This document shows, piece by piece, positions 36,918 through 39,727 of a stretch of 39,727 bases of DNA (the stretch's first letter is position 1; each line of letters starts with the position of its first letter). Origin of the DNA: an uncultured Erysipelotrichaceae bacterium (lineage in GTDB: Bacteria; Bacillota_I; Bacilli_A; Erysipelotrichales; Erysipelotrichaceae); the NCBI GenBank assembly GCA_902786245.1, contig CADABS010000021.1, forward strand, positions 1 to 39,727, read 5' to 3'. The position numbers and the translations under genes were made by a program. The notes below the pieces were generated by a model. It had not been told where the DNA came from and searched no databases. It was given only the letters and a program-made list of their open reading frames with translations.

Positions 36918-37454
36918 TCATTCCGTTCTTTCTAATTTACTGTTTTCCGTTGTGCTGCCGAAGCCGCCGGTGCGCTGTTCCTGTGCGTCATCGTCGACGG
37001 TAATGCCGAACGGCAGGAACAGTCCCTGCACCATTGCGTCATGCGCCTGCAGATGCAGTGTTCTGTTCTCTCTTGAATCATTGATCAGCTTGCACATCAT
37101 ATGTCCTTCGTTGCGGGCATTGTAATAATCGCTGTCAATGATGCCGGCGGTATTGTCCAGCTGCAGCCTGTACTTAAAGCCCAGCGAACTTCTCGGCACG
37201 ATCACCAGTACATAGCTGCTATCCATTTTAGCACGGATACCGGTAGGAATGAGAATTTCTTCCCCGGCTGCCAGATCAAATGAAACCGGCGCATAGAAAT
37301 CATATCCTGCCGATCCGGCGGTTGCCCGCTTCGGCAGTTTTATATTCTCATGGATCTCCCGGATCCGTTCTTCCGGTGTATCCGGGAACAGACGCAGCCA
37401 GTCTTCCGTAAACTGCTGCAGGCTGACTTTTTCAAACTTTGCTATTCTTTCCAT
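36918..37454 (-). CDS. dut: dUTP diphosphatase (dUTPase)
   Basis: Hydrolyses dUTP to dUMP and pyrophosphate, keeping uracil out of DNA and feeding dTMP synthesis. The 178-residue product has all five trimeric dUTPase motifs: AGSAGYDFYAP (1), PRSSLGFKYRL (2), NTAGIIDSDYYNARNEGH (3, catalytic Asp), MVQGLFLPF (4) and RTGGFGST (5, near the C-terminus). An N-terminal extension of about 40 residues (FTEDWLRLFPDTPEERIREIH) precedes motif 1. The start codon overlaps the patatin stop as TAATG behind GGAGGAATA. Its product pyrophosphate could be removed by the pyrophosphatase encoded in the same operon. Confidence 0.96.
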   Translation of the reverse strand: MERIAKFEKVSLQQFTEDWLRLFPDTPEERIREIHENIKLPKRATAGSAGYDFYAPVSFDLAAGEEILIPTGIRAKMDSSYVLVIVPRSSLGFKYRLQLDNTAGIIDSDYYNARNEGHMMCKLINDSRENRTLHLQAHDAMVQGLFLPFGITVDDDAQEQRTGGFGSTTENSKLERTE

Positions 37455-38725
37455 TATTCCTCCGCCAGTTCCTTCATCATATATGTTAATAGATCTGCCA
37501 GTGCCTGTTCAAACGGATAGACCGTAAGGATGACATTCTCGGTAAAAAAGCTGTGTTCGGGATAGAGATTATGATGCAGAAGCCGGGCGATGACGCTTTT
37601 GCGGTCTGCCACATTGAATCCCATCTGCCGGAACGGCGAGAAGTCTTCCTCCGCCGCTTCCTTAAAGGATGCCAGCAGAAGATTCCGGGCTTCTTTATAG
37701 GTCATGATTTTCGTTTCATCTGCTCTGCACATATCCAGAAGAACATCCATCATGCCGAACAGATACTGGAATGAAGTCAGATGCGTGACAAACAGCTGTT
37801 CTTTCAGCGTATCCGTAATATACTGCGGCGAACGCAGTGCATCGCTGATCGAATTGGCCAGCTTGATCCTGGTCTCCAGCAGCATCACCGACCGGTACCA
37901 TTCATTGTAATATGCCGGCTTTTCAAACGGATAGAATGTATACCGCTCCCCTTTGTACCGGCCATAAGCCTTCATGCAGTCGTTGTATCCCATCGTTCTC
38001 GCCGTACGCATCCGGTCTTTGTCAAAATCCAGGAACGAGAACAGTTCGGTATGCGGATGGATATATACGATTCCGTCTCTGTCCAGATAGTTGGGATGCT
38101 TGGGATTCTGGCTGAGATCGATGGCGATGATTTCTTCTGCCCCCATTCGCATCGCGAAGTCGACGGGAAAGTTATCAAAGTATCCGCCGTCCACGTATTC
38201 GGTTCCGTCAATGACAGCCATGGGAAATGCCGGATATGCCGCTGCTGTAGCGACCAGCCACTGTTCCCCGTTTTCTTTCATCATGTCTTTTGTGACATAG
38301 ACCGGTTCATGCCCTTTGGCAGTCGCTGTGATGCATCCGAAGTCGATATCCGACGCAAAGAATCTGTCGGGATGGTAGTATTCATGGACCAGTTCCCGGA
38401 ACGGTGCAATATCGACGCCGTGATCTTTGAGCCACGTCCTGAATGCCGGGATAATGGTTTCCCTCTCCCGGATCAATGTCGAAAGATTCATATCATCGGG
38501 ATTCGGTACGAATCCGCTGATGATCTGGTCGGCTGTCAGGTGTTCATACATATCGATCATCGCCTGGAAATCATGCTGGACAAGCATGACGGCATTGAGT
38601 GCACCTACGCTGGTGCCGGTGATGATATTCCAGTCGTCTTCTCCAAGTTCACGCAGTGCTTCCACAGCTCCGGCCTGATAAATGCCGCGCGTACCTCCGC
38701 CGGCCATAACAAGTGCCTTTTTCAA
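37454..38725 (-). CDS. patatin-like phospholipase, RssA-type, operon leader
   Basis: Predicted serine lipid acyl hydrolase. Numbered from the TTG at 38725 (423 residues), it has MAGGGTRGIYQAG (oxyanion loop), the nucleophile Ser39 in GTSVG and the dyad Asp in YVDGGYFDNFP. A C-terminal helical region (about 280-423) of unknown role follows. Start choice: the TTG has a strong GGGGGTG 8 nt upstream and gives a typical N-terminus (KKALVMAGGGTRG). A longer in-frame reading to 38785 would pass through both promoter hexamers. It is the first gene of the five-gene operon with dut, map, the nitroreductase-like gene and the pyrophosphatase gene. Why a phospholipase leads this operon is not apparent. 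Confidence 0.9.
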   Translation of the reverse strand: MKKALVMAGGGTRGIYQAGAVEALRELGEDDWNIITGTSVGALNAVMLVQHDFQAMIDMYEHLTADQIISGFVPNPDDMNLSTLIRERETIIPAFRTWLKDHGVDIAPFRELVHEYYHPDRFFASDIDFGCITATAKGHEPVYVTKDMMKENGEQWLVATAAAYPAFPMAVIDGTEYVDGGYFDNFPVDFAMRMGAEEIIAIDLSQNPKHPNYLDRDGIVYIHPHTELFSFLDFDKDRMRTARTMGYNDCMKAYGRYKGERYTFYPFEKPAYYNEWYRSVMLLETRIKLANSISDALRSPQYITDTLKEQLFVTHLTSFQYLFGMMDVLLDMCRADETKIMTYKEARNLLLASFKEAAEEDFSPFRQMGFNVADRKSVIARLLHHNLYPEHSFFTENVILTVYPFEQALADLLTYMMKELAEE

Positions 38726-38756
38726 GAGAAACACCCCCTTTTGAAAATCATGTACT

Positions 38757-38785
38757 ATTATGCGAGTTTTTTCTGCTTTTGTCAC
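38757..38785 (-). promoter_or_regulatory. promoter of the patatin-dut-map-PPase operon
   Basis: Minus-strand -35 GTGACA (38785-38780), 17-nt spacer, -10 CATAAT (38762-38757), each 5 of 6 to consensus. The -35 lies inside the left copy of a 26-bp direct repeat (38766-38791). Confidence 0.7.
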
Positions 38786-38791
38786 ATAAAC
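38766..38791 (+). repeat. left copy of direct repeat flanking the DUF2089 cassette
   Basis: 26-base sequence reading G, six T, CTGC, four T, GTCACATAAAC. It is nearly identical to 39581-39607, differing by one added T and two substitutions. It carries the -35 element of the minus-strand patatin operon. Confidence 0.75.
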
Positions 38792-38827
38792 CTTATAATA
38801 ATTAAAACCCTACATGTTTTTTCAGAC

Positions 38828-38847
38828 TTTAATTAAATTAAATTTAA
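38828..38847. promoter_or_regulatory. two tandem 10-bp palindromes at the DUF2089 promoter
   Basis: TTTAATTAAA (38828-38837) is directly followed by TTAAATTTAA (38838-38847). Both are perfect palindromes ending 1 base before the -35. They may be binding sites for a dimeric regulator, possibly the DUF2089 protein itself, or simply AT-rich UP-element sequence. Confidence 0.4.
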
Positions 38848-38848
38848 C

Positions 38849-38877
38849 TTGAATAAAATTAAAATTATTGGTATATT
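38849..38877 (+). promoter_or_regulatory. promoter of the DUF2089-membrane protein pair
   Basis: -35 TTGAAT (38849-38854), 17-nt spacer, -10 TATATT (38872-38877), in a very AT-rich region. AGAAGGAGA follows before the ATG at 38894. Confidence 0.65.
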
Positions 38878-38893
38878 TTAGAAGGAGATAGTA

Positions 38894-39199
38894 ATGCATT
38901 ACTTGAATCATTCCAAATGGTGGGAACTACTGGATGAAAATGACTTGTCTTTTATCCGGAGATTTGTCTTAAAATCCGGCTCTTTGAAGGAAATGGCAAA
39001 AGAATATGGAGTTTCCTATCCTACCATGCGCAACCGGCTGGATATTCTGATCAGAAAACTAGAAGCAATCGAAGAAAGCGAGGATGATGAATACATTCTG
39101 TTAATCAAAACTCTGGCAATTGAAAACAAAATGGATTTCGAAACGGCAAGGATACTCATTCAGGAATACAGGAAAGGCAAAGAAAATGAAACTATATGA
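38894..39199 (+). CDS. DUF2089 family helix-turn-helix protein
   Basis: Predicted small DNA-binding regulator. The 101-residue product has LDENDLSFIRRFVLKSGSLKEMAKEYGVSYPTMRNRLDILIRKL (about 14-57), where KEMAKEYGVSYPTMRNRLD is the helix-turn-helix. The zinc-ribbon N-terminus of longer DUF2089 proteins is absent. A helical C-terminal tail follows (ILLIKTLAIENKMDFETARILIQEY). Such proteins are commonly encoded beside small membrane proteins, as here. The ATG at 38894 has AAGGAG upstream. Codon use is more A/T-ending than in the rest of the window, hinting at transfer. The stop overlaps the next gene by 14 nt. Confidence 0.87.
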   Translation: MHYLNHSKWWELLDENDLSFIRRFVLKSGSLKEMAKEYGVSYPTMRNRLDILIRKLEAIEESEDDEYILLIKTLAIENKMDFETARILIQEYRKGKENETI

Positions 39200-39539
39200 G
39201 TGGTTAGCGCTGAGTCTGGGCGGGGTATTGTTTCAGCAGTTGCCTGCTCTGCTTATAGTTGTGATTTTTCAGGTTCTGATCTGCAGAAAATCAAATAACA
39301 CAGTTTTAACGCTGCTGCTTCCTTGCGCCGGAATCATTTATCTTGTATATGCACTTATCAGATACTATCAGTCTGTATACATGCTGATAGATGTCAACCA
39401 CTGGTATTTATGGTATGGGCTGCTGCTGATCATTCCTTATTCCAGTTATACGGTACTGACATTGATTACCGCATATCTGTTCCGGAAACGGAAAACACGG
39501 CAGGTTGAATTACAGGCGATGAAGATTCACGATCTGTAG
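39186..39539 (+). CDS. small membrane protein paired with DUF2089, unknown function
   Basis: Product of 117 residues starting at the ATG at 39186 (MKLYEWLAL). It overlaps the end of the DUF2089 gene by 14 nt and has GGAAAGG about 12 nt upstream. It has three hydrophobic helices (about 12-33, 40-62, 73-97), then a basic tail (FRKRKTRQVELQ). No motif is recognised. The in-frame ATG at 39120 is rejected because it lies deep inside the upstream gene and adds a non-hydrophobic basic stretch. As translation is coupled, the protein probably senses or is controlled together with the DUF2089 regulator; this is inference. A strong terminator follows. Confidence 0.75.
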   Translation: MKLYEWLALSLGGVLFQQLPALLIVVIFQVLICRKSNNTVLTLLLPCAGIIYLVYALIRYYQSVYMLIDVNHWYLWYGLLLIIPYSSYTVLTLITAYLFRKRKTRQVELQAMKIHDL

Positions 39540-39554
39540 TGGCAGAAGTATCAG

Positions 39555-39588
39555 ACACGGGTGTATTGGGCATACCCCGTGTTTTTTT
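39555..39588 (+). terminator. intrinsic terminator of the DUF2089 cassette
   Basis: Stem ACACGGG/CCCGTGT with further GTAT/ATAC pairs (one T bulge) and a 5-nt loop, then a run of seven T. The T-run is also the start of the right direct repeat. Confidence 0.85.
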
Positions 39589-39607
39589 CTGTTTTTGTCA
39601 CATACAC
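39581..39607 (+). repeat. right copy of direct repeat flanking the DUF2089 cassette
   Basis: 27 bases: G, seven T, CTG, five T, GTCACATACAC. It matches 38766-38791 with one insertion and two substitutions. The distance between copies is about 815 bp. Confidence 0.75.
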
Positions 39608-39637
39608 ATTTCAATCCTGCCATTCCTGTGCAGATGG

Positions 39638-39698
39638 CGGAGTTTCGGATCCAGTTAGTCGGAATTTCCGGATCCACATGGTCGGAGAATCGGATCCA
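39638..39698. mobile_element. three GGATCC-centred repeats at the window edge, possible insertion-sequence end
   Basis: Three imperfect units, CGGAGTTTCGGATCCA, CGGAATTTCCGGATCCA and CGGAGAATCGGATCCA, begin at 39638, 39660 and 39683 (period 22-23 bp). Multiple short terminal repeats of this kind are found at the ends of some insertion sequences, such as IS21-like elements. No transposase is inside the window, so this is tentative. Confidence 0.4.
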
Positions 39699-39727
39699 CC
39701 TAAATACAAGGAAATATAGTGGCTCCC

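What the first reader, a model, noticed from the sequence alone, without database searches (positions are those of the whole stretch)
38766..39607. DUF2089-membrane gene pair bracketed by near-identical 26/27-bp direct repeats
The sequence G-T6-CTGC-T4-GTCACATAAAC at 38766-38791 recurs at 39581-39607 with one extra T and two substitutions. Between the copies lies an AT-rich two-gene unit with its own promoter and terminator. The left copy holds the -35 of the patatin-dut-map operon; the right copy forms the terminator T-run. This looks like a small cassette inserted with duplication of a promoter-proximal site, or a recombination scar.
Basis: seen in the sequence. Interest (0 to 1): 0.6.

Follow-up and report, generated by a model that had tools for sequence, protein, structure and literature searches.

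The report
Acquired, self-regulated small-membrane-protein gene pair
A two-gene unit (a DUF2089 DNA-binding protein and a small membrane protein), related to pairs that sit beside leaderless bacteriocin genes, has been inserted between two neighbouring housekeeping genes in this bacterium; the near-identical repeats around it are real, but how they arose cannot be proved with the genomes on hand.

Summary
The repeat is real: 23/26 ungapped, or 26 vs 27 nt with one extra T and two substitutions. It occurs only twice in the 2.75-Mb genome, and no shuffle or real-sequence control reached its score. The two genes (DUF2089, 101 aa; 3-TM protein, 117 aa), promoter and terminator are as described. 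The "inserted cassette" idea is partly supported. In 27 of 29 congener loci patatin directly faces ddl across 77-241 bp, without the pair. Here the gap apparently holds the pair, an IS21 copy and an acidic-protein gene: contigs C21 and C29 end in opposite IS21 ends sharing a 7-bp target duplication. No relative shows a single-repeat empty site, so target duplication is unproven; only 2 of about 80 DUF2089 loci have such flanking repeats. New here: DUF2089 genes carry a conserved operator, TTTAAT-N3-ATTAAA (exact in 24/83 upstream regions versus 0.05 expected), and partner proteins share a C-terminal E-x-x-K-M-x-x-x-D-L tail. Related pairs adjoin aureocin A53- and enterocin L50-type bacteriocins. 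Best reading: an orphan, autoregulated membrane-protection module; new member of a known kind.

The parts
37454..38731 (-). patatin-like phospholipase gene (TTG start), first gene of the patatin-dut-map operon; left border of the insertion zone
   Evidence: PF01734 E 2e-28; conserved neighbour of ddl in congeners
38757..38785 (-). promoter-like site of the patatin operon, GTGACA-N17-CATAAT; first hexamer lies in the left repeat
38766..38791 (+). left copy of the direct repeat
38826..38842 (+). predicted DUF2089 operator 1, ACTTTAATTAAATTAAA
   Evidence: only exact matches in the genome are this site and the next; motif enriched upstream of DUF2089 genes
38847..38863 (+). predicted DUF2089 operator 2, ACTTGAATAAAATTAAA, 21 bp from operator 1 and covering the -35 hexamer
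38849..38877 (+). promoter-like site of the gene pair, TTGAAT-N17-TATATT
38894..39199 (+). DUF2089 gene: helix-turn-helix domain plus SHOCT-like C-terminus, 101 aa
   Evidence: PF09862 68 bits (cut-off 33.4); PF22746 22.4 bits, below cut-off 27
39186..39539 (+). small membrane protein gene, 117 aa, about 3 TM segments, C-terminus VELQAMKIHDL
   Evidence: 33 bits against a profile of 57 partner proteins
39553..39584 (+). terminator hairpin; its T-run begins the right repeat
39582..39607 (+). right copy of the direct repeat (27 nt if counted from 39581)
39622..39628 (+). ATTCCTG, presumed target-site duplication of the IS21 copy; second copy at the end of contig C29
39629..39727 (-). istB-side end of an IS21-family element (three CGGATCCA repeats); the contig breaks inside it

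Best explanation
The interval is a horizontally acquired, self-contained two-gene module placed between patatin and ddl. The DUF2089 protein (HTH plus SHOCT-like tail) binds two TTTAAT-N3-ATTAAA-type sites, one of which covers the -35 hexamer of its own promoter, and so limits transcription of the pair. The small 3-TM partner sits in the membrane and protects the cell from a membrane-active peptide or similar stress; its conserved tail (E-x-x-K-M-x-x-x-D-L) probably contacts the regulator's SHOCT-like tail and passes the signal on. The direct repeats are most likely the scar of the event that brought the pair in, one copy having been, or become, part of the patatin promoter. Shown: the parts, the operator motif and its uniqueness in the genome, the tail motif, the linkage of related pairs to leaderless bacteriocins, the broken patatin-ddl neighbourhood. 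Inferred: repression, protection, tail contact, and the origin of the repeats.
For: Insertion: ddl divergent from patatin in 27 of 29 congener loci; own ddl on contig C29 behind an acidic-protein gene and an IS21 end sharing ATTCCTG with C21, while the alternative contig C37 shares no base. Acquisition: DUF2089 gene in 1 of 69 other congener genomes and 1 of 16 same-order genomes; related genes on 80 plasmids. Module: of 82 loci with a following ORF, 71 carry the C-terminal motif. Operator: best match exact in 24 of 83 upstream regions and within 2 mismatches in 73, against 0.05 and about 18 expected in shuffles; four control palindromes gave no exact match. Operators overlap the best promoter-like site in 50 of 72; only two exact sites in the genome for ACTTKAATNNNATTAAA. 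Function: pairs next to aureocin A53-type or L50-type bacteriocin genes and in enterocin DD14, bawcin and thucin clusters; the small membrane protein DdD of the DD14 cluster is an experimentally shown immunity protein (PMC13262744). Mobility: L105 and L113 share a 727-bp, 92% identical unit in otherwise unrelated flanks.
Against: No bacteriocin-like gene was found near the pair (a simple filter). The DD14/L50 partner proteins lack the C-terminal motif and match the partner profile only weakly (17-20 bits), so transfer of the immunity function is indirect. No congener shows the empty site with one repeat. No transposase or integrase belongs to the pair. The C21-IS21-C29 join is inferred, not assembled. 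Operator position alone does not tell repression from activation.
Confidence: 0.55

Rival explanations
1. The pair was inserted by an unknown recombinase or transposition event that duplicated a 26-33 bp target at the patatin promoter, i.e. the unit is a discrete mobile cassette.
For: Near-identical long direct repeats directly around the unit; L105 has a comparable arrangement, with about 58-bp repeats around a similar unit, and L113 has the same unit in other flanks without such repeats.
Against: Only 2 of about 80 such loci have repeats of this strength; the repeat is not found elsewhere in the genome; 26-33 bp is long for a transposon target duplication; no recombinase is present in the unit; the L105 repeats are of a different sequence and each contains its own terminator.
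Confidence: 0.25
2. The repeats arose independently of any insertion, for example by a local duplication of the promoter-proximal stretch or by capture of the terminator tail through recombination between T-rich sequences.
For: Both copies start with a T-run, and the right one is the terminator tail; the copies already differ at 3-5 of 26-33 positions.
Against: The match extends through TTTTGTCACATA, well beyond the T-run, and no control pair scored above 15 against 19.
Confidence: 0.3
3. The repeats are two binding sites of one regulator acting on the patatin operon and on the region right of the pair.
For: The left copy covers the patatin -35.
Against: No further copy in 2.75 Mb; no conservation in 29 congener upstream regions; the right copy is not at a recognisable promoter.
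Confidence: 0.07
4. The pair did not enter on its own but came with a larger segment (pair plus acidic-protein gene) or by a rearrangement that broke patatin from ddl; IS21 entered afterwards.
For: The acidic-protein gene also sits in the former patatin-ddl gap and lies on other contigs than patatin in the congeners that have both.
Against: The join across IS21 restores the ancestral patatin-ddl orientation, which favours insertion over inversion; the one other congener with a DUF2089 gene (G041) has no acidic-protein gene.
Confidence: 0.3

Closest known systems
DUF2089 protein plus small membrane protein pairs of leaderless bacteriocin clusters (DdC-DdD of enterocin DD14, L50E-L50F, thucin orf1-orf2, bawcin BawC-BawB, pairs beside aureocin A53-type genes)
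   Same: Sizes, HTH plus small 2-3 TM protein, in most the same gene order; pairs beside aureocin A53-type and Priestia L50-type genes also share the C-terminal E-x-x-K-M/I-K-x-x-D-x type of tail
   Different: No bacteriocin, PH-domain or ABC transporter genes seen beside the window pair; the DD14/L50 partners lack the tail motif
DUF2089 / SHOCT-like proteins of Toastrack, PspC and LiaI-LiaF gene neighbourhoods (PMC11237479)
   Same: DUF2089-type HTH with a SHOCT-like C-terminus coupled to a membrane partner
   Different: No Toastrack, PspC or LiaI-LiaF domain here; the paper describes an N-terminal zinc ribbon that the 101-aa window protein has little room for
IS21-family insertion sequences
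   Same: IstA/IstB genes and multiple terminal repeats in congener G047; 7-bp target duplication at C21/C29
   Different: It is the neighbour of the unit, not its carrier; the transposase genes were not found in this assembly

Membership tests
DUF2089 family (PF09862) | Match above the curated cut-off | tested here: met
   68.1 bits, cut-off 33.4
DUF2089 family (PF09862) | SHOCT-like C-terminal domain (PF22746) | tested here: inconclusive
   22.4 bits over residues 66-97, cut-off 27; three homologues score 24-26
DUF2089-small membrane protein pair | Overlapping or adjacent small membrane protein gene with the C-terminal E-x-x-K-M-x-x-x-D-L type of tail | tested here: met
   Window tail VELQAMKIHDL; 71 of 82 partner ORFs have the motif
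DUF2089-small membrane protein pair | Operator TTTAAT-N3-ATTAAA upstream | tested here: met
   Exact at 38828-38842, one-base variant at 38849-38863
Leaderless bacteriocin immunity locus (DD14 type) | Leaderless bacteriocin gene nearby | tested here: not met
   No convincing candidate peptide in 36.0-39.7 kb of the window or at the C29 end by a simple filter
Leaderless bacteriocin immunity locus (DD14 type) | Membrane partner homologous to DdD/L50F | tested here: inconclusive
   No significant BLASTP match; a profile of partners gives 17-20 bits to DdD-like proteins, which lack the tail
Leaderless bacteriocin immunity locus (DD14 type) | Protects against a bacteriocin | not testable with these tools
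   Needs an assay
Mobile cassette with target duplication | Empty site with a single repeat copy in a relative | tested here: inconclusive
   29 congener loci lack the unit, but the repeat sequence is not present upstream of patatin in any
Mobile cassette with target duplication | Further cassettes with the same repeat in the genome | tested here: not met
   Only two copies

The most novel reading that the evidence does not exclude
DUF2089-membrane pairs are mobile, autoregulated membrane-protection modules found well beyond bacteriocin producers (many Bacillota, Gardnerella, a methanogen), moving as units of about 0.7-0.85 kb that can pick up direct repeats with a terminator at their ends, and controlled through one conserved operator and a membrane-tail contact.
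Probability: 0.3. Interest if true: 0.6.

Novelty: new member of a known kind. Interest (0 to 1): 0.4.

Why it matters
DUF2089 pairs are widespread, yet in the library searched only seven papers mention DUF2089. A conserved operator and a conserved membrane-protein tail give directly testable handles on what the regulator binds and how the membrane partner may control it, and suggest that bacteria which make no leaderless bacteriocin carry orphan protection genes of this kind.

Tried and rejected
Genome-wide repeat family: rejected, only two copies. Phage or viral carrier: no match in phages or viral contigs for the protein, and none in viral contigs for the repeat. Empty site in congeners: no repeat copy in 29 upstream regions. 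Direct repeats as a general mark of DUF2089 pairs: 2 of about 80 loci. IS21 transposase in the own genome by NCBIfam model: one weak hit, in what reads as a LacI-type regulator gene; the element was identified through congener G047 instead. C37 as the contig across the IS21 copy: no shared target bases. Nearest solved structure of the DUF2089 protein by sequence: only chance-level matches. No structure prediction was run.

Full report
OBSERVATION. The two repeat copies differ at 3 of 26 positions ungapped, and the similarity continues to 33 nt at 85%. Two 160-190 bp stretches with the same base usage never gave a score as high (best 15 against 19 in 3 x 2000 simulations), nor did 6000 real segment pairs at a similar distance. 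The two sites are the only close ones in the genome. The minus-strand patatin promoter GTGACA-17-CATAAT has its first hexamer in the left copy, the plus-strand promoter of the pair is TTGAAT-17-TATATT, and the terminator T-run starts the right copy.

SURROUNDINGS. In congeners the patatin gene faces ddl (D-alanine-D-alanine ligase) directly, 77-241 bp apart, in 27 of 29 loci; of the other two, one contig ends there and one has another gene. In the window genome ddl lies on contig C29 behind an acidic repetitive protein gene. The window contig and C29 both end in arrays of CGGATCCA. Congener G047 shows that such arrays are the two ends of a 2.66-kb IS21-family element with IstA and IstB (the family name rests on the gene pair and the end structure, from general knowledge of IS21). 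The window ends in the istB-side end, C29 and C37 in the istA-side end. C21 and C29 share the 7 bases ATTCCTG directly at the element's ends, C21 and C37 share none. The likely order is therefore patatin(-), repeat, DUF2089, membrane protein, terminator/repeat, IS21, acidic gene, ddl(+): the ancestral neighbours with additions between them. The acidic gene lies on other contigs than patatin in the congeners that have both. The join is an inference.

DISTRIBUTION. The DUF2089 protein was found in 1 of 69 other congener genomes (48% identity, beside sequence that looks like an ICE, with two small membrane proteins) and 1 of 16 same-order genomes (the contig length fits a Candidatus Stoquefichus record, Erysipelotrichales). 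Its close relatives are scattered over Bacillota, Gardnerella and others, and 80 plasmids. It was not found in phage records. This points to acquisition.

THE MODULE. I compared 83 loci (80 from GTDB genomes, two from the genome searches, the window). A small membrane protein follows in nearly all, and 71 of 82 partner ORFs end in a short motif of the type E-x-x-K-M-x-x-x-D-L although the membrane part varies strongly. Several of the remaining eleven are ORF-calling errors of the script. Upstream of the DUF2089 gene lies a palindrome TTTAAT-N3-ATTAAA: exact in 24 of 83, within one mismatch in 44, within two in 73, against 0.05, about 3 and about 18 expected from dinucleotide shuffles; four control palindromes of like composition gave no exact match. 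Related sequences are not independent, so the counts overstate the number of separate origins. Where a promoter-like site could be placed, the motif overlaps it in 50 of 72. The window has two sites 21 bp apart, the second on the -35 hexamer, and no other exact site of the 17-base pattern exists in the genome. I infer local autoregulation, most simply repression. I did not find this operator in the passages on DUF2089 of the papers that I looked into, but those were read only in part.

FUNCTION. In the enterocin DD14 cluster the DUF2089 gene ddC is followed by ddD, and DdD was shown genetically to give immunity (PMC13262744). Bawcin and thucin clusters hold such pairs as well. Of seven plasmid neighbourhoods reached through the DUF2089 search, those of Staphylococcus epidermidis, Parageobacillus and Priestia have an aureocin A53- or L50-type gene within 3 kb, and their partners carry a similar tail to the window's. 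The true L50/DD14-type partners are more distant and lack the tail, so the functional transfer is by family resemblance and context. No bacteriocin gene was seen near the window pair: it would be an orphan protection module.

THE REPEATS. Only one other of about 80 DUF2089 loci has flanking repeats of this strength: Clostridium sp. CF012 (L105), with about 58-bp copies each holding a terminator; another Clostridium (L113) has the same 727-bp unit, 92% identical, in unrelated flanks. So such units do move as blocks, and repeats can accompany them, but repeats are not a rule. In the window the repeat may be a target duplication, a trace of recombination, or a local duplication; the tools cannot separate these because no close relative is held.

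VERDICT. Observation confirmed; insertion supported; the specific mechanism (duplication of a promoter-proximal site) open.

Noticed in passing
window 39629-39727; L037 (C29 end); L151 (C37 end): The contig ends inside an IS21-family element; at least two copies in this genome, whose transposase genes are missing from the assembly.
   Followed up: yes
L037 2799-4163: Acidic, Glu/Pro-rich repetitive protein gene between ddl and the IS21 end; in the genus only in some species, on other contigs than patatin.
   Followed up: partly
L105 3691-3749 and 4616-4674: Long direct repeats, each with a terminator hairpin, around a DUF2089 pair in Clostridium sp. CF012, near a tyrosine recombinase and an IS91-like transposase gene.
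   Followed up: partly
L036 1-1030: In congener G041 a DUF2089 gene is followed by two small membrane proteins, both ending in KMKAKD plus one or two residues, beside sequence that looks like an integrative conjugative element.
   Followed up: no
L022 2868-4220: In congener G048 a MATE-type efflux gene stands where ddl stands in the others.
   Followed up: no
L057, L058, L061, L063-L066, L068: In Gardnerella and Bifidobacterium the DUF2089 partner is a 57-aa single-TM protein that still ends in a D-L tail.
   Followed up: no
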